Assembly (NCBI RefSeq): GCF_002023715.1
Contig: NZ_MAHX01000005.1
Coordinates: 124,001-188,000, forward strand
Length of the DNA stretch: 64,000 bases
Origin: Elizabethkingia occulta
Lineage (GTDB): Bacteria > Bacteroidota > Bacteroidia > Flavobacteriales > Weeksellaceae
Reading direction: 5' to 3'
Shown in pieces: positions 46,362 through 62,629 of this stretch; within the stretch, counting starts at the first letter, position 1, and each line of letters begins with the position of its first letter. Both the position numbers and the translations under genes were made by a program. Below the pieces are notes generated by a model. That model searched no databases. It worked only from the letters and a program-made list of their open reading frames with translations, and was not told the origin of the DNA.

Positions 46362-48533
46362 TTACCTTCCTCCCGGAGGACAATGTTCTTTTAAATATTT
46401 CGTAAACATTGTTGCCAGGTGAAGTGATGTTCCTTCTCCCTCACTAATAGAATGCGTTCTGTTAGGGTAAGACATCAACTGGAATTGTTTGTTGTATTTT
46501 ACCAACTCATTAATATAGACTTCTGTATTCTGATAGTGTACATTATCATCACCTGTTCCATGTACCAATAAAAGATTTCCTTTCAGGTTTTTAGCATAAG
46601 CCAAAGGAGAACCTTTTACAAAATCTTCTCTGTTTTCCTGTGGAAGCCCCATATATCTTTCCTGATAGATGTTATCGTAGAATAGCTGATTGGCTACAGG
46701 TGCAATGGCGATTCCTGTTTGGTAAATTTCTGGATATTGACCTAAAAGGTTTAATGTGGAAGATCCACCACCACTCCAGCCCCATACAGCAACTCTGGAA
46801 GTATCTATATATGGCCATTTTGCAAATAAAGCTTTAGCTCCCATTGCCTGGTCACGAATATTAAGCTGTCCAATTTTACGGTAAACAGATTTTCTCCATT
46901 CACGTCCTTTTGGAGCTGGTGTACCACGGTTTTCAAGAGAAACATACAGATAACCATCCTGAGCCATATCACCAATATATAAGCTGTTCCAGCCTGTATA
47001 GAAATTATCAGTTACTGTTTGGGATCCAGGCTCACCATATACTGTGAAAACAATTGGATATTTTTTTGTAGGATCAAAATTCTTAGGTTTTACTACCCAT
47101 CCATCTAAAGTAACACCATCTTGGGTTGTTATCTGGAAAAATTCTGCTTTGGATTTTGCAGGATCTGCTTTAGCGGATCTTTTTGCAGCTACCAATTCTT
47201 TATGGTCAGGAAGAGAAATCACCGTACCTGCAGAAACCCCATCTACACTACTGTTATTGAATATCGCAAGCTTTCCGTTTGGTGATATCGTATATTTGTT
47301 AGATCCGGTATAGGCTTCTGGTGTAATTCTCTCTGCTTTTCCGCCATCCAGACTTACTTTATATAAATACTCCTGAGCAGCATTTTTAGGTGAAGCTGAA
47401 AAATAAATTAACTTATTAGGAACATCAAAAAACTCTGGCTTTATAACATCAAAAGCATCCTTTGTAATTAATGTTTCCTTTCCATTCAAGTCTATTTTAT
47501 AGATATGTCTCCAGCCATCCTTTTCGGATAGCCAAAGGAATTCCTTCCCGTTATTGATCCAATCCCATCCGCTTGGATCACCATCATTCCACATTGTTTT
47601 CACATCAATCCATGCCGGATCCGATTCCGATTGGATAGTTTTACTAGCTCCTGTAGAAGCATTTGCCAGAATAATTTTACTCTGATTTTGTTTTCTGTTC
47701 AGCTGTTGTAGAATAATTGACTTTGAGTCCAATACCCATTCCATTCTCGGAATATAATGTTGTACTTCATCGCCTTCTATATTGGCTTTTTTGGTAGTAT
47801 TTGTAGAAAGATCGTAAAACCAGATGCTGCAACCTGAAGGGTTCTCGCCTACTTTTGGATATTCTACCGGAATCGTAAATGAATACAGACTATCGGTATT
47901 ATTAATCATCAAAAAGTTCTTAGTACCATTGGCATCCAGCTTCCAGTAAGCAATTTTGTTTCCGTCCGGAGACCATCTGAAACCGTCTTTGGCACCAAAT
48001 TCTTCTTCATAAGCCCAGTCGAATGTTCCATTAATCATTCTGTCGGTACCATCGTTGGTTATTTTGTTTAGTTTATTGTTTGCAAGATCCTCAATATAAA
48101 TATTGTGTTTAGACACATAAGCTACTTTCTTTCCGTCTGGCGAAAACTTAGCAAACATAAGAGAGGCTTCAGGCAAACCTTTACCCAGCTGGGTAAGTTT
48201 CTTTGTATTTTTATTAAAAACCCAATAATCTCCCTTTGTATTCACCCGCCATACACGTTTTGTATTAGCAAATAATAACAGGTTATTTCCATCTGGAGAT
48301 ACCTGAAAACTTTGCACATTCAGCGGTGTTGAACTTCCTGCGGGAATAAGTGCTTCTTTTGGCAGAAAAGGCTGGTTTTTTCCGGAATTAACAAGATCTA
48401 CAACCTCGATTCCGTTTTTGGTAAACGAATAATACGCATTCCCATCTGGCGTCCATTGTTTGTTCTGTGCTATCAGAGGAGAAATGCACAAATAACAAAA
48501 CGCAAGGTTAACTAGTTTTTTTATATTCTTCAT
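46362..48533 (-). CDS. Dipeptidyl-peptidase IV (S9B) family protein
   Basis: A 723-residue exported serine peptidase with a signal peptide ending PLIAQ. An N-terminal beta-propeller carries the double-Glu motif DWAYEEEF (Glu176, Glu177) that grips the substrate amino terminus. The alpha/beta-hydrolase domain has Ser587 (GWSGGGS), Asp662 (HGTGDDNVH) and His694 (NRTHSI). It removes X-Pro dipeptides from peptide N termini in the periplasm. It follows the aminopeptidase P gene by 13 bases, forming a proline-peptide unit that faces the hydroxyproline operon. Confidence 0.94.
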   Translation of the reverse strand: MKNIKKLVNLAFCYLCISPLIAQNKQWTPDGNAYYSFTKNGIEVVDLVNSGKNQPFLPKEALIPAGSSTPLNVQSFQVSPDGNNLLLFANTKRVWRVNTKGDYWVFNKNTKKLTQLGKGLPEASLMFAKFSPDGKKVAYVSKHNIYIEDLANNKLNKITNDGTDRMINGTFDWAYEEEFGAKDGFRWSPDGNKIAYWKLDANGTKNFLMINNTDSLYSFTIPVEYPKVGENPSGCSIWFYDLSTNTTKKANIEGDEVQHYIPRMEWVLDSKSIILQQLNRKQNQSKIILANASTGASKTIQSESDPAWIDVKTMWNDGDPSGWDWINNGKEFLWLSEKDGWRHIYKIDLNGKETLITKDAFDVIKPEFFDVPNKLIYFSASPKNAAQEYLYKVSLDGGKAERITPEAYTGSNKYTISPNGKLAIFNNSSVDGVSAGTVISLPDHKELVAAKRSAKADPAKSKAEFFQITTQDGVTLDGWVVKPKNFDPTKKYPIVFTVYGEPGSQTVTDNFYTGWNSLYIGDMAQDGYLYVSLENRGTPAPKGREWRKSVYRKIGQLNIRDQAMGAKALFAKWPYIDTSRVAVWGWSGGGSSTLNLLGQYPEIYQTGIAIAPVANQLFYDNIYQERYMGLPQENREDFVKGSPLAYAKNLKGNLLLVHGTGDDNVHYQNTEVYINELVKYNKQFQLMSYPNRTHSISEGEGTSLHLATMFTKYLKEHCPPGGR

Positions 48534-48546
48534 ATCTGGTATTTAA

Positions 48547-49941
48547 TTAAGCTAAATGTTGGGCTCTGTAGTTTTCAATTTCTTCAACCGTTTTAATTAG
48601 TCCATTTCCTAAAAGTCTGTATCCTTCATTTGTAATCAGGAAATCATCTTCAACACGTACGCCTCCGAAATTCCGGTATTCATTTACTTTATCATAATTG
48701 ATGAATTCAGCATTTTTATTTTCTGCCTGCCATATATCGATTAGTTCCGGGATCATATAGATGCCAGGTTCTACGGTTAATACAAATCCGGTTTCCAGTG
48801 TTTTACCCAAACGTAGAGACTTAAGTCCAAAAGTTTTGGTGTCTTTCGGCTCTTCTTCGGTATAGCCAATGTATTGTTCGCCCAAATCTTCCATATCGTG
48901 TACATCTAATCCCATCATATGCCCTAATCCGCATTGGAAGAATAAAGTATGAGCATGATTTTTTACTGCCTCTTCAGGATTTCCTCTCATTAATCCTAAA
49001 TCAGTAAGTCCTTCTACCAGATATTGGGAAGCTTTCAGGTGAATATCTTTAAACCTAACTCCGGGTCCTAATAGTTGTTGTGAATTGTTAAATGCATTCA
49101 GAACTATTTCATACATCTCTTTTTGCATGGTTGTAAAGGTATTGTCTACCGGAAAAGTTCGGGTAAGGTCACCGGCATATCCCATTGAAGTTTCTGCACC
49201 GGAATCATTAAGGAAAAGATCGCCACTTTTTAGAGTATTCAGTCGATAATGGTTATGAAGTATACCTCCGTTTATTGTTACAATTGGCGGATAAGACATC
49301 TGGCATTCTTTATTTGCTGCAAGATGCTGAATTGCGTTGGCGACTTCATATTCTTTGATACCTGGTCTGGCAATACGCATTGCCAGCAAATGCATTTCAT
49401 TGGATACGTTTATGGCTTGCTCTATTTGTGCAATTTCCTGCTGTTCTTTTATAGAACGTTGTTTTACAATTGCTTTAATCAACTCAACAGACGGTTGTAA
49501 TTCTGTGATTTTAATTCCAAGAAGAGCACCCAGCAATATTTTATTGGAAGGCTGATACGGTGGAAGGTAATGTACATTTCTTCCTGAAGCCTGAGCCTTT
49601 TGTACATATTTATAAAGCTCTGCATAAGGAAGGGTTTCATGTACATCAGATTTCAAACTCTTTTCTTTCAGGGTTTCCTGTCTGCCCATCCATACGATAT
49701 CGTCTATACTGAGTTCGTCTCCGAAGATAATGGTTTTATTTTCGTCTATATCAATAATAGCTGCAATCCTGGGTTCCTTAATGCCAAAGTAATATAAGAA
49801 GCTACTGTCCTGGCGGAAGTAATAAGGATTGTGTTCAAAATTTACAGGGTTTTCTATGTTCCCTAAAAATAGCAAGATTCCGTTAGTAACATTGTCTTTT
49901 AATACGGTTCTTCTATTCTGGTAAGTTTGTGGTGAAAACAT
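48547..49941 (-). CDS. Xaa-Pro aminopeptidase (aminopeptidase P, M24)
   Basis: A 464-residue cytoplasmic metallopeptidase. The N-terminal AMP_N domain is followed by the pita-bread fold. The dinuclear metal ligands are in LNDSGAETSMGYAGDLTRTFP (two Asp), GLGHMMGLDVHDM (His), LTVEPGIYM (Glu) and GVRVEDDFL (Glu). It cleaves the residue before an N-terminal X-Pro bond. As first gene of the unit with DPP IV it should help free proline and hydroxyproline from collagen-like peptides. A candidate AraC site lies about 120 bases upstream. Confidence 0.94.
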   Translation of the reverse strand: MFSPQTYQNRRTVLKDNVTNGILLFLGNIENPVNFEHNPYYFRQDSSFLYYFGIKEPRIAAIIDIDENKTIIFGDELSIDDIVWMGRQETLKEKSLKSDVHETLPYAELYKYVQKAQASGRNVHYLPPYQPSNKILLGALLGIKITELQPSVELIKAIVKQRSIKEQQEIAQIEQAINVSNEMHLLAMRIARPGIKEYEVANAIQHLAANKECQMSYPPIVTINGGILHNHYRLNTLKSGDLFLNDSGAETSMGYAGDLTRTFPVDNTFTTMQKEMYEIVLNAFNNSQQLLGPGVRFKDIHLKASQYLVEGLTDLGLMRGNPEEAVKNHAHTLFFQCGLGHMMGLDVHDMEDLGEQYIGYTEEEPKDTKTFGLKSLRLGKTLETGFVLTVEPGIYMIPELIDIWQAENKNAEFINYDKVNEYRNFGGVRVEDDFLITNEGYRLLGNGLIKTVEEIENYRAQHLA

Positions 49942-50059
49942 ATTATGAATATTGGTTATTTAAAGGTTTAAAGTTACGATTTTATAATGTTTACAAGGTG
50001 TTGTTTATGAAAAATAAACCGCTTGTAAAGATTGTATTTTAATATGACATTCAATGTTT

Positions 50060-50094
50060 ATATTTTGCTTAAATTCGGCAATATTTTAACACCT
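50060..50094. promoter_or_regulatory. Candidate AraC operator, site 1
   Basis: ATATTTTGC at 50060 and ATATTTTAACACCT at 50081 begin exactly 21 bp apart, the spacing expected for AraC-type direct half-sites. The 14-mer ATATTTTAACACCT recurs in inverted orientation at 51005-51018. Relative to the aminopeptidase P gene, its orientation equals that of site 2 relative to the hydroxyproline operon. Confidence 0.65.
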
Positions 50095-50116
50095 TACCCA
50101 AAGTTTAGTTTTTTGT

Positions 50117-50995
50117 ATGAAAAGTCTTCAGTTCTCTGTACCCGCCAATACTAATAAAAGTATTAGTATCCAGGAAGATATAATGACTCATTTTTATCCT
50201 TATTTCCACCGTCACGACGAAACACAGATTATGTGGATTGTAAAAGGACACGGAACATTGGCTATTGAACAAAATCTACTCAGTTTTAAAGAAGGAGATA
50301 TCTTTTATTTAGGAGCTAATCAGGCTCATGTTTTTAAAGCCGATTTTAAGAAAAATGAAAAACACAAAGTACATGCAGTATCTATTTTTTTTGATCCTTA
50401 TAAAAAGATTTCCGGAATTTTTAATTTGCCTGAATTTGAGGAACTGAAGGATTTTATATCCGGTTCGGAGGTAGGTTTCCAGGTAGCACAAGAGCTAAAA
50501 GCTAATATAAGCGGTAAAATAAAAGAATTGCAAAAGATGCAGGGTGTGGAACAGATTATGTGCTTTATAAAAATCCTGAACGATCTTATGCTGAACAAAA
50601 CACTTCATATTCCATTGTCTGCTGGTAAGAACTTCTCGGGTCATATTTCCGATAACGATAAGAGAATCATAGATGCCCAAAGTTATATCAGGAAAAACTT
50701 TGCCCAGCAAAAACTTACTTTGGATGATATTGCAGAACAAGCATGCCTTACACCACAGGCATTTTGCAGATCTTTTAAAAAACGGACAGGTATTACTTAT
50801 ATCCAGTATCTCAATGAGCTGCGTGTGCAGCGTGCCTGTAAATTACTTACATCTTCAGGAATGAATAGTATTTCTTCTGTTGCATTCAATAGTGGATTTA
50901 ATAGTTTGACCAATTTCAATCGTGTATTTCGGACGATTATGAAATATTCACCTAAAGAGTATTTAAAGCGATATAAAGAGACTATAACTGATTGA
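50117..50995 (+). CDS. AraC-family transcriptional regulator
   Basis: A 292-residue regulator. The N-terminal cupin part (HRHDETQIMWIVKGHGTLAI, FKEGDIFYLGANQAHVF) would bind the inducer. The C-terminal double helix-turn-helix spans about 185-290 (LTLDDIAEQACLTPQAFCRSFKKRTG, then ISSVAFNSGFNSLTNFNRVFR). It lies directly before the four hydroxyproline-degradation genes and divergent from aminopeptidase P. Repeated 21-bp-spaced sites on both sides of the gene suggest it controls both arms and perhaps itself. Hydroxyproline or a derivative is the natural inducer guess. Confidence 0.92.
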   Translation: MKSLQFSVPANTNKSISIQEDIMTHFYPYFHRHDETQIMWIVKGHGTLAIEQNLLSFKEGDIFYLGANQAHVFKADFKKNEKHKVHAVSIFFDPYKKISGIFNLPEFEELKDFISGSEVGFQVAQELKANISGKIKELQKMQGVEQIMCFIKILNDLMLNKTLHIPLSAGKNFSGHISDNDKRIIDAQSYIRKNFAQQKLTLDDIAEQACLTPQAFCRSFKKRTGITYIQYLNELRVQRACKLLTSSGMNSISSVAFNSGFNSLTNFNRVFRTIMKYSPKEYLKRYKETITD

Positions 50996-51004
50996 AAATT
51001 ACAC

Positions 51005-51039
51005 AGGTGTTAAAATATGGTTAGAATCTATTAAAATAT
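51005..51039. promoter_or_regulatory. Candidate AraC operator, site 2
   Basis: AGGTGTTAAAATAT (51005-51018) is the exact reverse complement of the 14-mer at site 1. A second TTAAAATAT half-site at 51031-51039 lies 21 bp from the first at 51010-51018. The block ends 26 bases before a -7 box, a position suited to activation. Confidence 0.68.
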
Positions 51040-51065
51040 TAACATTTAGGGGTTTTAAATTCTGT

Positions 51066-51073
51066 TAGTTTTG
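51066..51073 (+). promoter_or_regulatory. -7 box of the hydroxyproline operon
   Basis: TAGTTTTG matches TAnnTTTG, 18 bases before the first ATG. The lack of a -33 TTG fits an activator-dependent promoter. Confidence 0.55.
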
Positions 51074-51091: not shown

Positions 51092-51997
51092 ATGAGTACA
51101 AAACTTAACTGGGAAGGAATTTACCCGGCTGTGTTAACTCCTTTTACAAAGGAAGGTGGAATAGATTTTGAGATGTTTGCTAAAAATACTGAGGCTCAGA
51201 TTAAAGCTGGTGTACATGGTATTATCCTTGCCGGTACATTAGGAGAAGCCAGCGCATTGGAAACAGAAGAAAAATTTGAGCTTCTGAAATTTGCTAAAAA
51301 AATTACAGATGGAAGAATCCCGGTTATTCTTAATCTTTCAGAAAATACAACAAAAAGCGCTATAAGCTATGCGAAAAAAGCTAAAGAACTAGGTGCTGAC
51401 GGATTAATGTTGCTTCCTCCTATGCGCTATAAAGCAGATGATTATGAAGTAACCGAGTATTTTAAATCCGTAGCATCTGCCACAGACCTTCCTATTCTTA
51501 TTTATAACAATCCTGTAGATTACGGTATCTATGTTACCCTGGAAATGTTTGAAGAGTTAGTAGCCTGCCCTACTATTCAGGCCGTTAAAGAATCAACAAG
51601 GGATTTAGCAAATGTTACCAGAATGATTAACCGATTTGGTAAAAGAATTAAAATACTGGGAGGTGTGGATACAATCTGTCTGGAAACTTTAATGTTGGGA
51701 GCAGATGGTCTGGTAGCTGGTCTTGTAGATGCTTTTCCAAATGAAACTATGGCAATGTATAATCATGTTAAAACAGGTAATTATGATAAGGCTGTAACCA
51801 TTTACCGTTGGTTTATGCCTTTATTGGAACTGGATATACATCCTAAACTTATTCAGTATATAAAACTTGCCGCTACTGCTGAAGGAATCAGTAATCCTTA
51901 TGTAAGAGCTCCGAGACTTGAATTACATGGTGAAGAAGCCCACAGGATTAATAAAATAATTGCTGATGGTATAACAAACCGCCCTGTGTTGGATTAA
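51092..51997 (+). CDS. DapA-family lyase, probable pyrroline-4-hydroxy-2-carboxylate deaminase
   Basis: A 301-residue TIM-barrel class I lyase. The Schiff-base lysine is Lys166 (AVKESTRDLAN) and the partner tyrosine is Tyr138 (LIYNNPVDYG). GTLGEASALETEEKFEL is the DHDPS/NAL signature region. By sequence alone it could be a dihydrodipicolinate-synthase-like aldolase. Its place between an AraC regulator and the other three hydroxyproline enzymes makes it the likely deaminase turning Delta1-pyrroline-4-hydroxy-2-carboxylate into 2-oxoglutarate semialdehyde and ammonia. Confidence 0.87.
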   Translation: MSTKLNWEGIYPAVLTPFTKEGGIDFEMFAKNTEAQIKAGVHGIILAGTLGEASALETEEKFELLKFAKKITDGRIPVILNLSENTTKSAISYAKKAKELGADGLMLLPPMRYKADDYEVTEYFKSVASATDLPILIYNNPVDYGIYVTLEMFEELVACPTIQAVKESTRDLANVTRMINRFGKRIKILGGVDTICLETLMLGADGLVAGLVDAFPNETMAMYNHVKTGNYDKAVTIYRWFMPLLELDIHPKLIQYIKLAATAEGISNPYVRAPRLELHGEEAHRINKIIADGITNRPVLD

Positions 51998-52013: not shown

Positions 52014-53495
52014 ATGATTAAAGAAACATCCTTTCAGAGTATTGATCAAAGAATTTTATTGGCTACAGAAGCCTTTCAGTTTCTGAAGAATACAACTATA
52101 AAAGATCGGGAAGCCTTTATGAATGCTGTAGCCGATAAAATAGAAGCTTTAAATGAAGTTTTGCTGACGACAGCACATGCAGAAACATCTTTACCATTGG
52201 CCAGACTAACCGGAGAGAAAGCCAGAACTATCGGACAATGGCGAAGTTATGCTAAAGCTGTAGCAAAAGGAGTTTATACAGAGGCCAGAATAGATTTGCC
52301 ACAACCTAACCAGATAAAAGCCGATTTACGTAAATATAATATAGGTCTTGGTCCAGTTGTAGTTTTCGGAGCCAGTAATTTTCCTTTTGCTTTTTCAACA
52401 GCCGGCGGCGATACAGCCAGTGCTATTGGAGCAGGCTGCCCTGTTATTGTAAAAGCACATCCTGCGCATTCTGAAACTTCACAAATAATGGCAGATGCGA
52501 TAACTGAAGTTGTAAAAGAATTCGGTTGGCCGGAAGGTGTATTCAGTCATGTTACCGGAAAATCTAATGATACAGGTATCTATTTAGTTCAGCATAAAGA
52601 AATAAAAGCTGTAGCTTTTACAGGTTCATTTGTTGGAGGAAAAGCATTATTTGATCTGGCCAACCAGCGTGAAGAACCTATCCCTGTATTTGCTGAAATG
52701 GGTAGTATTAATCCTGTATTTGCATTTCAGAATCAATTAAACTCTAAAGCAGAAGAATTAGCGAAGGAATATGTTGCTTCTCTAACTTTGGGTGTTGGAC
52801 AATTTTGCACCAATCCGGGAGTTTTTATTGCACAAAATGGGTCGGGATTCGAACGTTTTAAAGTAACATTACAAAGTGAAATTCCAAATATAACTTCTGT
52901 CAATATGCTGCATAAAGGGATTTTTGAAAGTTTTGAAAACAATAAAAAAAGAGTTTGCTCCCAGTCCGATATTGCTGTTGTTTCTGAAGTTAATAATGAT
53001 ATTAATCGATGGGAAGGACGTGCTATGGTTATTGAAACAACTGCAGCAAGCTTTATTAAAAATAAAATCCTGAGTGAAGAAGTATTTGGACCGTTTGGGA
53101 TTATTGTCAAGTGTGAAAACAAAGAAGAAATGCTTCAGATTGCAAAACAGTTAAATGGCCAGTTAACGGCTACTATTGCTGCAACAAATGAAGATGTACG
53201 CGAGAATACCGATATAATAAATGCTGTAAAAGATAAATGTGGAAGACTCTTGTTCAATGGAATGCCAACTGGTGTAGAAGTCGTCTATGCCATGCAGCAT
53301 GGCGGCCCATATCCTTCTACTACTGATGCACGTTTTACATCTGTAGGACCTGATGCTGTAAAACGATTTCTTAGACCAATAGCCTTCCAAAATTGGCCAG
53401 ATGAATTTTTGCCGGAGGAGCTAAAGAATGAAAACCCTTTCCAGATTAGTAGAATTGTTGATGGTGAGGCGAATTTAGGATCATTAAAAATTTAA
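52014..53495 (+). CDS. 2,5-dioxovalerate (2-oxoglutarate semialdehyde) dehydrogenase
   Basis: A 493-residue aldehyde dehydrogenase. The catalytic cysteine is Cys265 in GVGQFCTNPG and the general base is Glu228 in VFAEMGSINP. The NAD(P)-binding FTGSFVGGKALF and the KAHPAHSETS segment match the 2-oxoglutarate semialdehyde dehydrogenase branch. It would oxidise the semialdehyde made by the upstream lyase to 2-oxoglutarate. It lies 16 bases after that gene, in the same operon. Confidence 0.9.
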   Translation: MIKETSFQSIDQRILLATEAFQFLKNTTIKDREAFMNAVADKIEALNEVLLTTAHAETSLPLARLTGEKARTIGQWRSYAKAVAKGVYTEARIDLPQPNQIKADLRKYNIGLGPVVVFGASNFPFAFSTAGGDTASAIGAGCPVIVKAHPAHSETSQIMADAITEVVKEFGWPEGVFSHVTGKSNDTGIYLVQHKEIKAVAFTGSFVGGKALFDLANQREEPIPVFAEMGSINPVFAFQNQLNSKAEELAKEYVASLTLGVGQFCTNPGVFIAQNGSGFERFKVTLQSEIPNITSVNMLHKGIFESFENNKKRVCSQSDIAVVSEVNNDINRWEGRAMVIETTAASFIKNKILSEEVFGPFGIIVKCENKEEMLQIAKQLNGQLTATIAATNEDVRENTDIINAVKDKCGRLLFNGMPTGVEVVYAMQHGGPYPSTTDARFTSVGPDAVKRFLRPIAFQNWPDEFLPEELKNENPFQISRIVDGEANLGSLKI

Positions 53496-53500
53496 AAACG

Positions 53501-54499
53501 ATGAACAGAACATTTTTTTGTATAGATTCCCATACCTGTGGTTGTCCTGTGCGGCTTGTTGCAGGTGGTGGTCCTGTTTTAAAAGGAAATTCCATGATGG
53601 AGCGCAGGCTTCATTTTATGAAAGAATATGATTGGATCCGAAAGGGGCTTATGTTTGAGCCTCGCGGGCATGATATGATGAGTGGCAGTATACTCTATCC
53701 GCCTATAGACGATGCAAATGATACCGGGGTATTGTATATAGAGACCAGTGGTTGTCTGCCTATGTGTGGACACGGAACCATTGGTACTGTAACTATCGCT
53801 ATAGAAGAAGGTTTGGTAATTCCGAAAGTTCCAGGTAAACTGCGGTTAGAAACACCGGCAGGATTGGTTCTTATCGATTATATACAGGAAGGAAAGAAAG
53901 TGAAATCAGTAAAGCTGACAAACGTAAAATCTTTTCTATATGCAGAAGACCTGGTAGTTGAATGTCCGGATTTGGGATCGATAAAAGTTGATGTCGCCTA
54001 TGGTGGTAACTTTTACGGTATTATAGATCCACAGGAAAATTTTAAAGATATTTCAGATTTCACTGCGAGCCAACTGATTCACTATGGAAAGCTGATTAGA
54101 AAATTGTTGAACGAGAAATACAGCTTTATACATCCTGAAGATGAAAATATAAACGGCTTAAGCCATATTCAGTGGACGGGAAATCCTACAGATCCTAAAG
54201 CAAGTGGCAAAAATGCTGTTTTGGTTGGTGAAAATGCATTAGACCGCTCCCCTTGTGGTACCGGAACATCTGCAAGAATGGCTCAGTGGTATGCTAAAGG
54301 CAAATTGAAACAAGGTGAAGAGTTTATTCATGAAAGCTATATTGGTTCTCAGTTTGTCGGAAGAATTGAAGGAACAACAACTATAAATGGAAAACCTGCT
54401 ATAATCCCCTCGGTTGAAGGATGGGCAAGAATTATGGGTTATAATCATATCATTATCGACGATGAAGATCCTTACTGGTTAGGCTTTCAGGTTATGTAA
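53501..54499 (+). CDS. 4-hydroxyproline epimerase (proline racemase family)
   Basis: A 332-residue enzyme. Both catalytic cysteines are present: Cys89 in LPMCGHGTIG and Cys252 in RSPCGTGTSA. That makes it an epimerase/racemase rather than the 3-hydroxyproline dehydratase, which has Thr in the second site. The residues around DSHTCGCPVRLVAGG also fit. It converts trans-4-hydroxy-L-proline to cis-4-hydroxy-D-proline. It starts five bases after the dehydrogenase gene. Confidence 0.92.
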   Translation: MNRTFFCIDSHTCGCPVRLVAGGGPVLKGNSMMERRLHFMKEYDWIRKGLMFEPRGHDMMSGSILYPPIDDANDTGVLYIETSGCLPMCGHGTIGTVTIAIEEGLVIPKVPGKLRLETPAGLVLIDYIQEGKKVKSVKLTNVKSFLYAEDLVVECPDLGSIKVDVAYGGNFYGIIDPQENFKDISDFTASQLIHYGKLIRKLLNEKYSFIHPEDENINGLSHIQWTGNPTDPKASGKNAVLVGENALDRSPCGTGTSARMAQWYAKGKLKQGEEFIHESYIGSQFVGRIEGTTTINGKPAIIPSVEGWARIMGYNHIIIDDEDPYWLGFQVM

Positions 54500-54509
54500 G
54501 TATAAACAT

Positions 54510-55775
54510 ATGACAGAAAATAAAGGAAAAGCACTAATTATAGGTGCAGGAATCGCAGGGTTAAGTTCCGCTTATTATTTGTTACAGAAAGGCTGGCAGG
54601 TAGAGATATTGGAGCAAAATGATTTGTCTGATAATTGTTCGTATGGGAATGCAGGAATGCTTGTGCCTAGCCATTTTACACCATTAGCCGCTCCTGGCGT
54701 TATTGCACAGGGAATCCGCTGGATGTTCAATAGCAAGAGTCCGTTTTATGTAAAACCAACAATAAGCAGTAAGCTTATTTCCTGGGGATTACAGTTCTTA
54801 AAACATTCTAATCAGAAACATGTAGATGCTTCTGCATCTGCAATCAGAGACCTGAATCTGGCCAGTAGTACATTGTATAATGAATTGGCCAAAACAGATG
54901 GTTTTAATTTTGAACTGAATCAGAATGGTATTCTGATGCTTTACAAAACTGAAAAAGTCGCAGAAGAAGAAGCTGAGTTAGCTCATATTGCCAGAGAATT
55001 AGGTTTAAATACAGAAATTCTGGATCAAAAGGAGATTCAGGAATTGGAACCCAATATTAATTTGGATGTTATAGGTGGTGTAAATTACAAATGTGACGGA
55101 CATTTAAATCCAATGAAACTAATGTCACAGCTGATTTCTTATCTTAAGAATAAAAATGTTGTTTTTCATACCCACCATCGTGTTTCAGGTTTTGAGATTT
55201 CCGGAAATAAAATAAATGCCGTCATTGCTAATGGAATAAAGTTTACAGGAGATCAGGTTATTATGACAGGAGGCTCATTTCTTCCAGAGTTAGCTCAAAA
55301 AGCCGGGATAAAAATTCAGTTAATGCCCGGAAAAGGTTACTCTTTTATTCATACACCGGATGATCCGAAAAGTAAGCTAGAGCATGCTGCATTATTATTG
55401 GAAGCAAGAGTTGCCGTAACGCCTATGGGCGGAAAGATACGTTTTGGAGGCACAATGGAGCTTGCACAGCATCAGCATAAAATTAATATGAACCGGGTTG
55501 AAGGTATTGTAGCGTCTATTCCAAAGTATATGCCTGACTTTAATATACCCCTTCCAAAAGAATCAGATATCTGGTATGGCTACAGACCATGTGCTCCGGA
55601 TGGTCTTCCCTATTTGGGTACTTCTTCTAAATTGAAAAATCTTATAATTGCTGGCGGTGGCGGAATGATGGGATTAAGTTTAGGACCTGTTTTTGGAAGA
55701 ACGGTTTCTGAAATTGCCAATGGGGATAAGCTATCTGTTGACATTGATATTTTCAGGCCTGAAAGGTTTGGTTAG
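54510..55775 (+). CDS. FAD-dependent D-amino acid (D-hydroxyproline) dehydrogenase
   Basis: A 421-residue flavoprotein of the DAO/DadA family. The dinucleotide fold GAGIAGLSSAYYL starts at residue 12, and the C-terminal RPCAPDGLPYLG and GGGGMMGLSLGPVFG complete the FAD site. In this operon the natural substrate is cis-4-hydroxy-D-proline, oxidised to Delta1-pyrroline-4-hydroxy-2-carboxylate. With it, all four steps of the pathway are present. General D-amino acid oxidation is the alternative. Confidence 0.88.
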   Translation: MTENKGKALIIGAGIAGLSSAYYLLQKGWQVEILEQNDLSDNCSYGNAGMLVPSHFTPLAAPGVIAQGIRWMFNSKSPFYVKPTISSKLISWGLQFLKHSNQKHVDASASAIRDLNLASSTLYNELAKTDGFNFELNQNGILMLYKTEKVAEEEAELAHIARELGLNTEILDQKEIQELEPNINLDVIGGVNYKCDGHLNPMKLMSQLISYLKNKNVVFHTHHRVSGFEISGNKINAVIANGIKFTGDQVIMTGGSFLPELAQKAGIKIQLMPGKGYSFIHTPDDPKSKLEHAALLLEARVAVTPMGGKIRFGGTMELAQHQHKINMNRVEGIVASIPKYMPDFNIPLPKESDIWYGYRPCAPDGLPYLGTSSKLKNLIIAGGGGMMGLSLGPVFGRTVSEIANGDKLSVDIDIFRPERFG

Positions 55776-56927: not shown

Positions 56928-57809
56928 TTAATTGAGTTTTAGTTCAATCGGATTATTTTCTCTTTTTAGTTTTTCTTTTGCTGTTTTTTCTATCTGCCGG
57001 ATCATGTCATTTGGATCTGTAACATCTTTACCATTTACATTGAATTTCATTTTTACACCAGGCCTGTTAAGGAGCTCCCGCATACTCTGTCCGGGATCTT
57101 TTTTATACTGATCCACAAGCTTAAGATATTGTAATTGGGAAATATCCAGAGGCTTATTCCTCAGTATAGATAATTCGGGTGAATTGCTGGCCGTGAGTTG
57201 CTCGTCTGTCATTTTTTTCACTCCTTTCAATTCCATAGTGTGGGTTTTATCTGCACTCTCAATTTTTACAATCAGGCCAGGAAGTCCACGGAATTTGTAA
57301 GGGCCATCCTGAAAAGGAATATCGGTGGTAAACCATGCTATCCATTTCCGTCCGGCAAAGTTGGTTTCCGCTTTTTGAGCATTGAATTCACCTATTTTTT
57401 GCTGGTCTTTTAATATTTTCCATTCTATTTTGCGATCGTCCAGAACTTTATATTTTGACATTCCACCAACTGCCCCGACATTGGTTAGCAGATAAGTCTT
57501 GTAATCCGGATAGTCTTTCTCTACGGAAAAATTAATACTTCCTTTATATCCTGATTTCATCTGAATATTGGAAGCACCCGTTTTCATTTGTTTTTCGACT
57601 TCAGCTTTTATGATACTGTCATTTTCATATTTGGCCTTGCTATAAAATTTAGAACCGGATTTACTTATATCTAGAATCATATGCTCAGTAGTTAATGAGT
57701 CTTTTCGGGTAGAATCAATTGCATATTTATATTCATAGGTAAACCTTTGGGCTGCTATATTGGTACAGAATGCTATAAAAAAGATGAAAAGAAATAATAA
57801 TTTTTTCAT
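56928..57809 (-). CDS. GLPGLI family exported protein (copy 1)
   Basis: A 293-residue protein with a signal peptide ending NIAAQ. The name-giving GLPGLI is at residues 175-180, preceded by the conserved FAGRKWIAWFTTDIPFQDGP block. The N terminus reads QRFTYEYKYAIDS, shared by all copies. The fold is probably beta-rich and periplasmic or surface-located. GLPGLI proteins are common in Bacteroidota and their function is unknown. It is last of four tandem paralogues in one direction. Confidence 0.9.
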   Translation of the reverse strand: MKKLLFLFIFFIAFCTNIAAQRFTYEYKYAIDSTRKDSLTTEHMILDISKSGSKFYSKAKYENDSIIKAEVEKQMKTGASNIQMKSGYKGSINFSVEKDYPDYKTYLLTNVGAVGGMSKYKVLDDRKIEWKILKDQQKIGEFNAQKAETNFAGRKWIAWFTTDIPFQDGPYKFRGLPGLIVKIESADKTHTMELKGVKKMTDEQLTASNSPELSILRNKPLDISQLQYLKLVDQYKKDPGQSMRELLNRPGVKMKFNVNGKDVTDPNDMIRQIEKTAKEKLKRENNPIELKLN

Positions 57810-57818
57810 ACAGAATAT

Positions 57819-58706
57819 TTATAATTGTTGTTCTATAAGGTTGTTTTCTTTTTTTATTTGCTCTTTAGCTGTTTTTTCCATCTGCTTCAGAATTTCGGCA
57901 TTGTCACTAATAATACGTCCATCGATATTAATGCTTACTTTCATATTCGGTTTGTTCATCATTTCGCGATAACCTTGTACAGGGTCATTTTTATATTGTG
58001 CTATGAGTTTTTTATACTGGCTTTGATTTACAGATAGTCTCTTTCCCATTTTTTCTTTATAAGCAATTGCATCTGTTTCTTCTTTTGTCAACTCTCGTTC
58101 AGGAATTTTCTTTACCGCTTTTAACTCCATTATATGAGTATGCTTTGCATCTTCAATTTTTACAATAAGTCCCGGAAGTCCATGAAATTTGTAAGGTCCA
58201 TCCTGAAAAGGAATTTCAGTAGTGAACCATGCTATCCATTTTCTTCCGGCAAAAGTTGTCTCAGCTTTCTGAGTATCGAACTCTCCTATTTTTTGTTTAT
58301 CCAATAATATTTTCCAGTTAAGTTTACGGTCATCTAAAACTTTATAATCTGTATTTCCAATACCCATTCCTACAGAAGTGCTGAACTCAATTTTAAAATC
58401 CGGATAGCTTTTTTCTATAATATAATCTATGCTTCCTTCACCAAAGCTTTTATTTACAGAGATACTACCGGGATTCATTTTCATTTGCTTAATGATAGCA
58501 ATTGTCTGAATAGAATCAGAATCAAATTGTTTCTTGCTGTAATATTTTGAGCCAGTTTTCAGAACATCCAGAAACATATACTCAGATTTTAAAGAATCTT
58601 TTTTCAAAGAGTCGTTGGTAAATTTATATTCATAAATAAACCGCTGAACCTGCCCTTGTACAGTTAATACAATAAGCAAACAAAAAATTGATATTGCATT
58701 TTTCAT
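57819..58706 (-). CDS. GLPGLI family exported protein (copy 2)
   Basis: A 295-residue paralogue with a signal peptide ending TVQGQ. It carries FAGRKWIAWFTTEIPFQDGP and GLPGLIVKIED, the closest match to copy 1 in the array. The C-terminal third, ending in lysine-rich helices, differs more. Nine bases separate it from copy 1, so they are co-transcribed. Function unknown. Confidence 0.9.
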   Translation of the reverse strand: MKNAISIFCLLIVLTVQGQVQRFIYEYKFTNDSLKKDSLKSEYMFLDVLKTGSKYYSKKQFDSDSIQTIAIIKQMKMNPGSISVNKSFGEGSIDYIIEKSYPDFKIEFSTSVGMGIGNTDYKVLDDRKLNWKILLDKQKIGEFDTQKAETTFAGRKWIAWFTTEIPFQDGPYKFHGLPGLIVKIEDAKHTHIMELKAVKKIPERELTKEETDAIAYKEKMGKRLSVNQSQYKKLIAQYKNDPVQGYREMMNKPNMKVSINIDGRIISDNAEILKQMEKTAKEQIKKENNLIEQQL

Positions 58707-58708
58707 AA

Positions 58709-59557
58709 TTACTTTAGTAAATCCAATTCTAGAATATTATTGTCCTTTTTCAGTCTTTCCATATCTTGTAGCTCCCGCTCTTTCATCATTTTATTCATAT
58801 CTATAGGATTACCACTGGAATCTCTTAAAACCTGGTTCGAAATAGTAGCCATTCTTTGCTTAAACTCTGCTGTGGGATCCTTTCGGTACATTTTGTAGAT
58901 TTTCACATACTGTGGGTAAGAAACATCTACAGCTTTCTGGGATAAAATAAATTCCCTATTGAAAGGAATCACCAGTTTACTTACTTCTTTCAGTTCAAAT
59001 ACATGAGATTTGCTTGTATCTTCAATTTTAACAATAAAGCCAGGAAGCCCATGGAATTTATATGGACCATCCTGAAACGGAATTTCAGTAGTAAACCATG
59101 CTGTCCACCTTCTTCCGGCAAAAGTTGTCTCGGCTTTCTGTGTCTCATAGTTCCCTACTTTTTGTTTATCTGAAAATATCTTCCAATCGAGTTTACGATC
59201 ATCGATAATCTTTAAAGCTTTTCCTGTTGTAGAACTTTCCTGTGTAACCTTAAAATCAGGATAGCTTTTATATATTCTATCTCTGAATCGACCTTTTCGC
59301 ATATTAGTTTTAACATTAATGCTATTTGTTGCTTTAAGCTGCCTTTCCATGTCTGCTTTCGCCAAAGAATCACTTTTGTAAACTTCATAACTATAAAACA
59401 GTGAACCTTTTGGAGTAACTTCCAGATGGGTGACTTCAGATTTAATATCATTTGCATTGGTAGAATCCGGTATAAATTTGTATTCATACACAAATTTCTG
59501 ATTTTGTGCATAGAGTATGCCGTATCCGGCAAGGAATAAGTAAAGGATTTTCTTCAT
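58709..59557 (-). CDS. GLPGLI family exported protein (copy 3)
   Basis: A 282-residue paralogue with a signal peptide (ILYLFLAGYGILYAQ). The central block FAGRRWTAWFTTEIPFQDGP is present, but the name motif reads GLPGFI. The C terminus is charged and helical. Only two bases separate it from copy 2. Function unknown. Confidence 0.9.
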   Translation of the reverse strand: MKKILYLFLAGYGILYAQNQKFVYEYKFIPDSTNANDIKSEVTHLEVTPKGSLFYSYEVYKSDSLAKADMERQLKATNSINVKTNMRKGRFRDRIYKSYPDFKVTQESSTTGKALKIIDDRKLDWKIFSDKQKVGNYETQKAETTFAGRRWTAWFTTEIPFQDGPYKFHGLPGFIVKIEDTSKSHVFELKEVSKLVIPFNREFILSQKAVDVSYPQYVKIYKMYRKDPTAEFKQRMATISNQVLRDSSGNPIDMNKMMKERELQDMERLKKDNNILELDLLK

Positions 59558-59558
59558 A

Positions 59559-60380
59559 TTATTTTAGTGTTACTGCGTTATTCTTTTCAATTGGATTGTA
59601 ACTATCACGCATTGTTTTTTGTGAATTTTCGGTTGCTTCTTTTAAGTCAGCTTTTGTCTTATACTCTTTATCTCCTATTCTTATGCTCCATCTACCCTCA
59701 GGTGCTCCTCTTGCCCATGCAAACGGGTCATTGTAATAGTCTAGAAATAATTTTTTATACATAGCCATAGATATTCTTGTAGGTGCCTGGCCATAATAGG
59801 TTTCTAAAAAATTATCAGTAGACTGAGTTTTGCTGAAATTTTTATTTTTTACTAATTTATAATGAAAATGTCCTTCATTGTCTGATATTTCGAAAATTAA
59901 TCCGGGTAAGCCTCTGAATTTGTATGGGCCTTCATTAATCTGAATATCCGGAGCAAACCACGCTGTCCATTTCCTTCCACCAAAATCAGTTGTAGCTTTC
60001 TGAACTTTATACGTATCTATTTGTTTAGTTTCATCAGATAAATCCCATTTCATAGGATCTTCTGAAGGAAAAGCAAAATAGTCACTAACTCTGTGAAAGT
60101 TAGTATTATTAAAAGAATTTAGATCTCTCTTTAATAATTGTTTCGTTTCACTGCCTCTATAATGCCGGATTGCATCCGGAAGCTTATTCAAAGAATCTGT
60201 TTCCAGAAATCCATATTCATAGAATTTTACATCCTTAGGATTAATATCCAACACCATATTGGCATTTCGTTTACTATTCTCAGTAATATTATCTGTATAG
60301 GTAAGCTGATAGATATATCGTCGGGTCTGAGAGTGCATAAGAATACTAATGCACAATAAAAAAGTAATTGTGAATTTCAT
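59559..60380 (-). CDS. GLPGLI family exported protein (copy 4)
   Basis: A 273-residue paralogue and the most diverged of the four. The signal peptide ends LMHSQ. The central block is FGGRKWTAWFAPDIQINEGP followed by GLPGLIFEISD. It is the first of the array in transcription order and begins 16 bases after a terminator-like hairpin that follows the M56 gene. One base separates it from copy 3. Confidence 0.9.
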   Translation of the reverse strand: MKFTITFLLCISILMHSQTRRYIYQLTYTDNITENSKRNANMVLDINPKDVKFYEYGFLETDSLNKLPDAIRHYRGSETKQLLKRDLNSFNNTNFHRVSDYFAFPSEDPMKWDLSDETKQIDTYKVQKATTDFGGRKWTAWFAPDIQINEGPYKFRGLPGLIFEISDNEGHFHYKLVKNKNFSKTQSTDNFLETYYGQAPTRISMAMYKKLFLDYYNDPFAWARGAPEGRWSIRIGDKEYKTKADLKEATENSQKTMRDSYNPIEKNNAVTLK

Positions 60381-60421: not shown

Positions 60422-62629
60422 TTATGATTTCTTCTGAATTCTTATAATGGTTTTCTTGCCAGTGCTTTTTGTAATACTCATACTTTGGATATCCTTTGGA
60501 TTGATATCTTTCATAGCATCATAATCCACTTTTACTCCATCTACATAGACTTCAGTGTCTTTTCCAAAAGATGATATTTTTAAAGATGGTTTATCAACAT
60601 CGTCTCCAGTTGTAGTATATGTTGAAGTAAAGCTATAACTTTTAGGCTCATTACCTGCTACAGCCATAACAAAAGGTGAATCTGTTTTTGCAGAGATATT
60701 AATTGCTGTTTTGAACTTGGAAGAATTAGTAAAGTTTTTCTTTACATTATCAAGAATCTTCTGAATATCTTCATCCTTCATATTCTTATCTTTAAGATTA
60801 TTCTTCAATTCTTCCAAAACTTTATTTTGTCTTTCTTTGGTCATAAAAGTTCCGGAAAGGTCTACATTTTTAAAGCTGTCTTTAAATTTGTTACTCCAGT
60901 TTTGAACAGCCAGTCTGCTCTCTTCCATCATTTTTTTATATTCCGGAGAGTTAAGATATTCACGGGCTTTTTCGGCCTGCTTTCTTCCATCTTCAGCAGC
61001 CTTTTTAGCATTCTCTATTATCTGCTTGTACTCGGGAGAATTTAAGTAATTTCTAGCTTTTTCTGATTCTCTCCTGGCATTTTCCATTATTTGCTTATAT
61101 TCCGCAGAATTAAGATAAGCTCTTGCTTTCTCCGCTTCTTTCCTTCCTATATCAGCAGCTTTACGGGAATCTTCCATGATCTGTTTATATTCTGCAGAAT
61201 TAAGGTAAGCTCTGGCGCTTTCTGCTGCTTTCCTGCCTTCTTCACCGGCTTTTTTAGCATCAGCAATTATTTTCTTATACTCAGCAGAATTAATATAATC
61301 CTTTGCTTTCTGAGCCTCTTTCATGGCTCTGTCAAAATCTTTTTTCTGATCAGCAGTCATATCTTCATAACGAACATAATTGCCATTATAAATAATACTT
61401 CTTTGATTGTTTTTAAATTTTTTGCTATTTTCTGCAAATTTGGATTTAGTATCTCCGGAAAGGTCTTTCGAGCTTAGATCATAAGCATCAAAAATTGTAG
61501 TACCCGAACCAGAAGTTCCAGAATGATTGTAAGCATAACGGGCTTTTTTGTTTTGTTGATAGAATTCAGTAAACTCGGATTTGGTAACAGCTTTACCATT
61601 GATTTTGAAAATAGCATTGTCGGAAGCCTGCTCTATTTTTGTTAAAAGAGAACCTCTGTTATTATTTTCATTAATCTGGATTTGTACATTTTTATTATTC
61701 CCTGATCCGATAGTGTCTTGTTGAAGTGCATTAATAGCCACAGCTATCTCGCGGTTGGTTTTGGCAATTTCTTTATTTTTAGCTGTAACTAAATAGGTGA
61801 AAGAAATTCCGAATAAAACCGGAAGAGCCATTACCCTGCGCGCATAACTAAATTTGGTGTAATGAGGTTTAGTGATCATTTGTAATCTTTTTTTGAGGTT
61901 AGATGATAAGAATGGACTCGTAGCAGGTAAAGGTGTTCCGGAAAATTTACTTGCTAAAAGCATCTGCGCAAATGCCTTTGTGTCATTCTGTTTTACTGCC
62001 TTTTTATCGGCAAGATATTCGTGGATTAAGAATAGCTCTTTCTTAAGCCAGTAGAAAATTGGATTGAACCAGAATACGGCCTGTACAAATTCTATAAATA
62101 ACTTGTCCCAGCTGTGTTTCTGTTCTATATGTACCATTTCATGTTTCAGTATTTGTTTTCCAAGGTCCGAATCTATTTCAATAGATTTTTTCCAAAAAAG
62201 ATTTTTGAAAAATGAAAACGGAGCATCATGCAAGTCTGTAATATAGAAGCGAACGCCTTTTAGTTCTTTTCCGTCATACTGATTTTTCATTCGGTTAATT
62301 TTGTAAATACCAATCAGTAATCTTACGAAGAGCACTATAGATACTACTAATAATATGAAAAGTGCGATGCTTTTCCAATCAATCCCAGCAGTTGTATGAT
62401 TTGCTGTTTGTAAACTGAAACTCTGGAGAAGAAGGAATATTCTGTTGTCAGTTTCTATAGTAAAGTATTCTACCTTTAATAATGGTAAAAATAGACTTAT
62501 TACTATTGTTGCTAAAAGATAAAATCTGTTATAGTGGTGGAAGGTTTTATCTTTTAAGAAAAGCAGGTAATAACTCCACATAACAGCAGAGCATAACAGC
62601 ATCTTTCCAAGGTATAGTAGTGTTTCCAT
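60422..62629 (-). CDS. M56 (BlaR1/MecR1-like) membrane protease with helical repeat region
   Basis: A 735-residue protein. Four hydrophobic helices lie in the first 290 residues (about 5-25, 37-52, 87-108 and 266-283). The zinc motif is HEMVH at 163-167, with Glu204 in HEYLADKKAV as third ligand. Instead of a penicillin-binding sensor, the extracytoplasmic C-terminal part holds five Tyr/Leu/Glu/Lys-rich helical repeats (about 441-575) and a closing beta region. With BlaI it should form a protease-repressor pair that responds to an envelope signal. Its ATG overlaps the blaI-like stop by one base. Confidence 0.87.
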   Translation of the reverse strand: METLLYLGKMLLCSAVMWSYYLLFLKDKTFHHYNRFYLLATIVISLFLPLLKVEYFTIETDNRIFLLLQSFSLQTANHTTAGIDWKSIALFILLVVSIVLFVRLLIGIYKINRMKNQYDGKELKGVRFYITDLHDAPFSFFKNLFWKKSIEIDSDLGKQILKHEMVHIEQKHSWDKLFIEFVQAVFWFNPIFYWLKKELFLIHEYLADKKAVKQNDTKAFAQMLLASKFSGTPLPATSPFLSSNLKKRLQMITKPHYTKFSYARRVMALPVLFGISFTYLVTAKNKEIAKTNREIAVAINALQQDTIGSGNNKNVQIQINENNNRGSLLTKIEQASDNAIFKINGKAVTKSEFTEFYQQNKKARYAYNHSGTSGSGTTIFDAYDLSSKDLSGDTKSKFAENSKKFKNNQRSIIYNGNYVRYEDMTADQKKDFDRAMKEAQKAKDYINSAEYKKIIADAKKAGEEGRKAAESARAYLNSAEYKQIMEDSRKAADIGRKEAEKARAYLNSAEYKQIMENARRESEKARNYLNSPEYKQIIENAKKAAEDGRKQAEKAREYLNSPEYKKMMEESRLAVQNWSNKFKDSFKNVDLSGTFMTKERQNKVLEELKNNLKDKNMKDEDIQKILDNVKKNFTNSSKFKTAINISAKTDSPFVMAVAGNEPKSYSFTSTYTTTGDDVDKPSLKISSFGKDTEVYVDGVKVDYDAMKDINPKDIQSMSITKSTGKKTIIRIQKKS
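60905..61309 (-). repeat. Coding tandem repeat in the M56 protein (5 units of 30 or 23 residues)
   Basis: Each unit contains a core close to KARxYLNSAEYKQIMExxRK. Units begin near residues 441, 471, 501, 524 and 554. Four follow a 30-residue pattern (the last is incomplete); the third is 23 residues, shorter by exactly seven, one heptad. The composition predicts long charged helices, possibly a coiled coil. Confidence 0.85.

What the first reader, a model, noticed from the sequence alone, without database searches (positions are those of the whole stretch)
50060..51039. Identical 14-mer with 21-bp half-site spacing on both sides of the AraC gene
ATATTTTAACACCT occurs at 50081-50094 and inverted at 51005-51018, and each has a weaker ATATTTT copy exactly 21 bp away. 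The orientation is the same relative to the aminopeptidase P unit and the hydroxyproline operon. This is strong internal evidence for one AraC regulon joining both arms.
Basis: seen in the sequence. Interest (0 to 1): 0.65.

Follow-up and report, generated by a model that had tools for sequence, protein, structure and literature searches.

The report
AraC operator pair for hydroxyproline regulon
Two matching DNA switches flank a regulator gene in an Elizabethkingia bacterium; they are kept base for base in over 30 related species, and one AraC-type activator very probably uses them to turn on both the enzymes that cut proline-rich (collagen-like) peptides and the pathway that burns the released hydroxyproline.

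Summary
ATATTTTAACACCT occurs exactly at 50081-50094(+) and 51005-51018(-), each with a second ATATTTT 21 bp away; these are the only exact copies in the 4.15 Mb genome. The flanks form one 42-nt inverted pair. In 32 (left) and 33 (right) distinct Elizabethkingia/Chryseobacterium genomes the element GTTAAAATA-N15-AAAATATNAACA is invariant, always with 21-bp spacing, and a sigma-A -7 box lies at one fixed distance downstream (perfect TAGTTTTG on the right, weak xAnnTTTA on the left). Four relatives that keep pepP-S9 but lack AraC and the hydroxyproline genes lack the element. Beyond the genus, orthologous AraC genes across Flavobacteriales face the hydroxyproline operon through diverged half-sites (GGATAATATAGTAT) with the same 21/34-nt geometry. 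Further operator copies near those loci head SusC/D importers, DPP-IV and M1-S9-PepP arms. Best reading: tandem AraC operators placed as for class II activation, joining prolyl-peptide breakdown to hydroxyproline catabolism. Binding, inducer and direction of control are untested. Known kind of switch; I found no description of this regulon.

The parts
50053..50094 (-). Left operator, read towards pepP: distal half-site GTTAAAATA (50090-50082), proximal half-site AAAATATAAACA (50066-50055), cores 21 bp apart
   Evidence: conserved in 32 distinct genomes
51005..51046 (+). Right operator, read towards the hydroxyproline operon: distal GTTAAAATA (51009-51017), proximal AAAATATTAACA (51033-51044), cores 21 bp apart
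   Evidence: conserved in 33 distinct genomes
51066..51073 (+). Predicted sigma-A -7 box TAGTTTTG of the hydroxyproline operon, 34 nt from the proximal core
   Evidence: Invariant in all right-hand rows at the same distance; TAnnTTTG is the flavobacterial sigma-A -7 box at -12 to -5 (PMC9723704)
50026..50033 (-). Weak -7-like box AATCTTTA (form xAnnTTTA) facing pepP at the same 34-nt distance
   Evidence: [ACT]AnnTTT at +34 in 34 of 34 left-hand rows
49969..49976 (-). TAACTTTA in a conserved pepP-proximal leader; possible second, AraC-independent promoter (P2)
   Evidence: Conserved in nearly all AraC+ loci and retained in the AraC-less pepP locus L118
50117..50995 (+). AraC-family regulator, 292 aa: cupin-like N-terminal domain and C-terminal double HTH
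   Evidence: Pfam AraC_binding, HTH_18, HTH_AraC
48547..49941 (-). pepP: aminopeptidase P family (AMP_N + M24)
   Evidence: Pfam
46362..48533 (-). S9 DPP-IV-like peptidase, 13 bp downstream of pepP, presumed same operon
   Evidence: Pfam DPPIV_N + Peptidase_S9; pepP-S9 order conserved
51092..51997 (+). DapA/DHDPS-fold protein, presumed 1-pyrroline-4-hydroxy-2-carboxylate deaminase (step inferred from pathway context)
   Evidence: Pfam DHDPS; operon context
52014..53495 (+). Aldehyde dehydrogenase, presumed alpha-ketoglutarate semialdehyde dehydrogenase
   Evidence: Pfam Aldedh
53501..54499 (+). 4-hydroxyproline epimerase
   Evidence: NCBIfam NF010578 equivalog, 575.7 bits against a cut-off of 376
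54510..55775 (+). FAD-dependent D-amino-acid dehydrogenase (DAO), presumed D-hydroxyproline dehydrogenase
   Evidence: Pfam DAO; operon context

Best explanation
The two inverted elements are operators for the AraC-family regulator encoded between them. Each operator is a tandem pair of half-sites 21 bp apart (two helical turns, one face). Reading towards the target gene, the proximal core starts 34 nt upstream of the -7 box, so it covers about -47 to -34 and overlaps the -33 region. This is the geometry of a class II AraC-type activator such as AraC at araI1-araI2. The right operator serves the 4-hydroxyproline operon (DapA-like, ALDH, epimerase, DAO); the left operator serves pepP-S9 and may also autoregulate araC. 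A ligand of the hydroxyproline pathway, inferred and by analogy with LhpR probably hydroxyproline itself, would switch the dimer to activation, coupling release of hydroxyproline from X-Pro/X-Hyp peptides to its catabolism. Shown: sequence, conservation, spacing, genome-wide exclusivity, co-loss with AraC, recurrence of the architecture in other families. Inferred: binding, activation, ligand.
For: Invariant half-sites and 21-bp spacing in 32 left and 33 right elements while flanking DNA has indels. -7 box at one fixed distance in both arms, and TANNTTTG at 34-35 nt in 22 of 24 other Flavobacteriales promoters. Two strong model hits per operon-bearing genome, next-best hit E about 0.04 or worse there; no strong hit in G002, G004, G025, G047. 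Four Chryseobacterium-group genomes with pepP but no epimerase gene and no adjacent AraC lack the element. Hydroxyproline-linked AraCs group together, apart from sampled paralogues (100/98). In other Flavobacteriales the same operator also heads SusC/SusD, S9 and M1-S9-PepP arms near the locus, with 34 hits in 392 kb against 0 in reversed or shuffled controls.
Against: No binding, expression or ligand data. The left -7 box is poor (xAnnTTTA), and a separate conserved pepP-proximal block (P2) may drive basal expression. The left element lies between pepP and araC, so its co-loss with AraC could in part be simple linkage. Half-site letters differ between the Elizabethkingia/Chryseobacterium group and other families. 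In G242, where pepP heads the operon, the best half-site pair seen by eye lies next to araC and none was found upstream of pepP.
Confidence: 0.85

Rival explanations
1. The left element is only an autoregulatory operator of araC; pepP-S9 is driven by its own promoter (P2) and is merely a neighbour.
For: The left element is close to the araC start codon (about 27-42 nt from the distal half to the end of ATG in the rows shown); a conserved pepP-proximal TAACTTTA block persists in an AraC-less relative; in G242 an operator-like pair lies next to araC with no pepP on that side (read by eye).
Against: Element orientation and the 34-nt distance to a -7-like box are conserved on the pepP side, while the araC side varies in length and has no TANNTTTG in 32 of 32 genomes. 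S9 and aminopeptidase P are in the hydroxyproline operon or in an operator-headed arm beside it in other genera.
Confidence: 0.1
2. The regulator represses both promoters and the ligand relieves repression.
For: AraC-family members can repress, and the proximal half-site overlaps the -33 region, where binding could block RNA polymerase.
Against: The 21-bp tandem next to a conserved -7 box with no evident -33 element matches activator architecture; the P. aeruginosa AraC-type regulator LhpR activates (PMC6608401).
Confidence: 0.08
3. Another transcription factor binds the elements, and linkage to araC is incidental.
For: No binding data exist here.
Against: The strong sites occur only at this locus and only in genomes with this AraC; the architecture follows the orthologous AraC across families.
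Confidence: 0.04
4. Chance similarity of AT-rich spacers.
For: Within this window alone, 14-nt runs arise in 8 of 3000 shuffles.
Against: Column-by-column conservation in over 30 genomes and no comparable site elsewhere in the genome.
Confidence: 0.01

Closest known systems
E. coli AraC at araI1-araI2 (class II AraC-type activation; from general knowledge)
   Same: AraC-family dimeric regulator with cupin-like sensor and double HTH; direct half-sites 21 bp apart; proximal half-site overlapping the -35/-33 region; regulator gene beside its target operon.
   Different: Different ligand class, half-site letters and promoter type (Bacteroidota sigma-A -7 TAnnTTTG). Here two operators flank the regulator gene and serve two arms.
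LhpR of Pseudomonas aeruginosa (AraC-family activator of lhp genes, described as binding L-Hyp; PMC6608401 citing Li et al. 2016)
   Same: AraC-family regulator linked to 4-hydroxyproline catabolism of the epimerase / D-Hyp dehydrogenase / deaminase / KGSA dehydrogenase type.
   Different: Orthology to LhpR was not tested here. I know of no prolyl-peptidase arm in its regulon.
HypR of Streptomyces coelicolor (PMC6608401)
   Same: One regulator ties a protein-degrading enzyme (putative M9 collagenase SCO5912) to hydroxyproline catabolism, the same logic as here.
   Different: GntR-family repressor, unrelated protein and operator.
Flavobacterial sigma-A promoters (TAnnTTTG -7 box; PMC9723704)
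   Same: TAGTTTTG downstream of the right operator fits the consensus.
   Different: The left arm carries only a weak match, fitting an activator-dependent promoter.

Membership tests
AraC/XylS transcription factors | C-terminal double HTH (HTH_18 / HTH_AraC) | tested here: met
   Pfam HTH_18 at 205-285, 75.6 bits against a cut-off of 33.6
AraC/XylS transcription factors | N-terminal cupin-like ligand-binding domain of the AraC type | tested here: met
   Pfam AraC_binding 29.1 bits against 21.1, partial model match
AraC-type tandem operator (araI1-I2-like) | Two direct half-sites about 21 bp apart, conserved | tested here: met
   21 bp in every Elizabethkingia/Chryseobacterium element and best or joint-best spacing in 22 of 24 distant promoters
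AraC-type tandem operator (araI1-I2-like) | Proximal half-site adjacent to or overlapping the -35/-33 region at a fixed distance from the core promoter | tested here: met
   34 nt from proximal core to -7 box on both arms and in most distant loci; transcription starts themselves not mapped
AraC-type tandem operator (araI1-I2-like) | Bound by the adjacent AraC protein | not testable with these tools
   Only indirect: co-occurrence, co-loss and genome-wide exclusivity
Hydroxyproline regulators of the LhpR kind | Controls a trans-4-hydroxyproline catabolic operon | tested here: inconclusive
   The operon has an epimerase above the equivalog cut-off and the operator at its promoter; expression not tested
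Hydroxyproline regulators of the LhpR kind | Orthology to LhpR | not tested
   LhpR sequence was not compared
Bacteroidota sigma-A promoter | TAnnTTTG -7 box | tested here: met
   TAGTTTTG invariant on the right arm; left arm only xAnnTTTA

The most novel reading that the evidence does not exclude
A Flavobacteriales-wide, so far undescribed AraC regulon for hydroxyproline and prolyl-peptide use: one orthologous regulator, one fixed 21/34-nt operator-promoter geometry, and gene arms (hydroxyproline operon, aminopeptidase P, DPP-IV, M1 peptidase, SusC/D importers) that rearrange between lineages, with operator copies found on split arms. The operator letters appear to have diverged with the regulator while the geometry stayed fixed.
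Probability: 0.7. Interest if true: 0.55.

Novelty: new member of a known kind. Interest (0 to 1): 0.45.

Why it matters
Regulation of collagen-peptide and hydroxyproline use in Flavobacteriales, a group with soil, marine, fish-pathogenic and opportunistic human species, appears undescribed in the papers I could search. The finding gives an exact operator, promoter boxes and a target list that can be tested by footprint or reporter, predicts a function for a regulator that carries only a generic family match, and offers a natural case of regulator and operator letters diverging under fixed geometry.

Tried and rejected
(1) The 14-mer as the functional unit: rejected, its ACCT/AGGT end varies outside Elizabethkingia. 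(2) An inverted-repeat reading (TGTTAA...TTAACA) of each element: possible by eye but not pursued, because the direct 21-bp reading is the one shared with other families, whose half-sites are direct. (3) More regulon members in the Elizabethkingia genome: none stand out, third-best model hit E = 0.09. (4) Applying the Elizabethkingia pattern to distant families: fails, because half-site letters have diverged; aligning those promoters on their own recovered the 21-bp geometry. (5) DNA looping between the operators: spacing is 917-934 bp with phase coherence 0.53 at 10.5 bp against about 0.16 expected for independent points; the genomes are related, so this is only a hint. (6) A conserved araC-ward TANNTTTG: none in 32 genomes. 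(7) Some of my own row counts held duplicates (L010 = L063, L012 = L036), corrected to 32 and 33 distinct genomes. (8) My first pattern had a one-base spacing error, fixed. (9) An AAACTTTA resemblance upstream of pepP in AraC-less genomes: alignment ambiguous, not used.

Full report
Observation. The 14-mer ATATTTTAACACCT lies at 50081-50094 (+) and 51005-51018 (-), and each copy has a second ATATTTT 21 bp away, at 50060 and 51033. Repeat analysis extends the pair to 42-nt arms 50053-50094 / 51005-51046, 74% complementary. These are the only two exact copies in the 4.15 Mb genome. Shuffles that keep dinucleotide content reach the 42-nt similarity in 1 of 3000 and a 14-nt run in 8 of 3000, so within one window the case is suggestive rather than decisive.

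Setting. The window is from an Elizabethkingia: its AraC is 99% identical to that of Elizabethkingia sp. YR214 and 91% to that of E. miricola. Leftwards run pepP (aminopeptidase P: AMP_N + M24) and an S9 DPP-IV-like peptidase. Rightwards run araC and then a DapA-fold protein, an aldehyde dehydrogenase, a 4-hydroxyproline epimerase (NF010578, 575.7 bits against a cut-off of 376) and a DAO-type dehydrogenase. This order is kept in nearly all of the 30 loci fetched from Elizabethkingia and Chryseobacterium; L054 ends at a contig edge before pepP.

Phylogenetic footprint. Aligning the two spacers and extracting the elements shows GTTAAAATA-N15-AAAATATNAACA in every row, with exactly 21 bp between the cores. 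After removing duplicate records, these are 32 left and 33 right elements from distinct genomes, and the half-site columns carry 2.0 bits while columns just outside the distal end fall to 0.1-1.1 bits on the left. On the right, TAGTTTTG lies at one fixed distance in every row, 34 nt from the T before the proximal core. TAnnTTTG is the sigma-A -7 box of flavobacteria at -12 to -5 (PMC9723704). On the left, towards pepP, a weaker xAnnTTTA lies at the same 34 nt in all rows, and the distance from element to pepP ATG varies only from 113 to 116 nt. Towards araC the spacer varies (24-39 nt) and has no TANNTTTG. The left element is therefore placed for pepP, though a second role in araC autoregulation is not excluded.

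Exclusivity and natural controls. A sequence-only model of the element (R1) finds two strong sites in the window's genome (E 1.2e-11 and 4.2e-11) and then nothing better than E = 0.09. In G001, G003, G005 and G063 it also finds exactly two; in G002, G004, G025 and G047 there is no strong site, the best being E = 0.008 in G004. Genomes G149, G205, G213 and G217 carry pepP at 84-88% identity but have no epimerase gene and no AraC beside pepP, and the region upstream of pepP lacks the element (best match 12-13 of 20 specified positions against 20 of 20 in AraC+ relatives). In G213 the pepP-proximal block TACAAAATCGTAACTTTAAAC is retained, which suggests a separate basal promoter. A caution is that the element lies between pepP and araC, so co-loss could partly reflect linkage.

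Other families. AraC genes 31-37% identical to the window's stand next to the same hydroxyproline genes in other Flavobacteriales. The Elizabethkingia pattern fails there, but their AraC|DapA spacers contain GGATAATATAGTAT-like half-sites. In 24 such spacers the best or joint-best second half-site lies at 21 bp in 22; the mean match at 21 bp is 6.4 of 9, against 3.6 or less at every other spacing from 12 to 45. TANNTTTG lies 34 nt (19 loci) or 35 nt (3 loci) from the second core, out of only 27 TANNTTTG in 3860 nt. So the geometry is shared while the letters have diverged. In a tree of 62 AraC proteins the hydroxyproline-linked ones fall on one side of a 100/98 branch, with three members for which no DapA was found within the short locus, and sampled paralogues fall on the other; the two Chryseobacterium arrangements group as sister to the other families, although long branches make that last join unsure.

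Both arms in other lineages. Aminopeptidase P (AMP_N + M24) sits directly after DAO in L066 and L068, and M24 and/or S9 genes lie in or beside many of the 20 loci read at up to 20 kb. A weight matrix made only from hydroxyproline-operon promoters finds 34 sites scoring 15 or more in 392 kb, against 0 in reversed and shuffled controls. The sites beyond the hydroxyproline promoters head SusC/SusD pairs (L177, L184), S9 peptidases (L184, L186) and, in L178 and L180, an M1-S9-PepP arm on the far side of araC with TACTTTTG or TATTTTTG at 34 nt. That is the same two-arm logic as in Elizabethkingia with different half-site letters. Whole-genome scans of eight such genomes put all sites with E at or below 0.001 on the contig of the hydroxyproline locus and within about 25 kb of its operator. 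Weaker sites lie beside an S37-type peptidase and an M24 gene (L211); other sites head unrelated-looking genes (DUF6055, a laminin-G protein). In Chryseobacterium-group G242 pepP, DapA, ALDH, epimerase, DAO and araC run in one direction, yet another way of joining the two functions.

Mechanism. Half-sites 21 bp apart lie on one helical face. Counting from the -7 box, the proximal core begins near -46 and reaches the -33 region. From general knowledge of AraC at araI1-araI2 this is class II activation. The inducer is unknown. LhpR, an AraC-family activator of hydroxyproline catabolism in P. aeruginosa, is described as acting on binding L-Hyp, and the S. coelicolor HypR regulon includes a putative collagenase (PMC6608401), so both the regulator type and the pairing with protein breakdown have precedents in unrelated systems. 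Five literature searches on hydroxyproline regulators, Elizabethkingia and collagen, and Bacteroidota regulons returned no description of this regulon among the titles and abstracts listed; that library holds only open-licence papers.

Verdict. It is a new member of a known kind of regulatory device. The wider point, an order-wide regulon with fixed geometry and diverged letters, is the more interesting part and is ready for testing.

Noticed in passing
window 56928-60380 (-): Four consecutive homologous ORFs (293, 295, 282, 273 aa) that share the motif GLPGLI, seen in the translations; a tandem family expansion.
   Followed up: no
window 60422-62629 (-): A 735-aa protein with a membrane-peptidase-like N-terminal part (HEMVH motif) and several near-copies of a unit like 'YLNSAEYKQIMEDARKAAEEGRK' further on.
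   Followed up: no
window 49969-49989 (-): Conserved block in the pepP leader (ATAAAATCGTAACTTTAAAC in the window), kept even in AraC-less G213; possible second promoter or leader element.
   Followed up: partly
L066 13618-15632: A second proline-racemase-family protein and an ornithine cyclodeaminase/mu-crystallin protein beside the hydroxyproline operon, possibly a trans-3-hydroxyproline branch.
   Followed up: partly
L173 5296-12836 and L172 11683-14145: Chryseobacterium-group G242 has pepP-DapA-ALDH-epimerase-DAO-araC in one direction; G215 has only pepP and araC side by side, as if the middle genes were lost.
   Followed up: partly
L211 148-2848: A short operator-like site between an M24 creatinase/prolidase-type gene and an S37-type peptidase gene in G088, about 20 kb from the hydroxyproline operator.
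   Followed up: partly
L119 1501-2892: pepP of G188 was reported with one internal TGA in its reading frame.
   Followed up: no
window 50082-51017: Across 32 genomes the two operators are 917-934 bp apart, in clusters about 10 bp apart (917-920, 926-930, 933-934); a possible hint of helical phasing, confounded by relatedness.
   Followed up: partly
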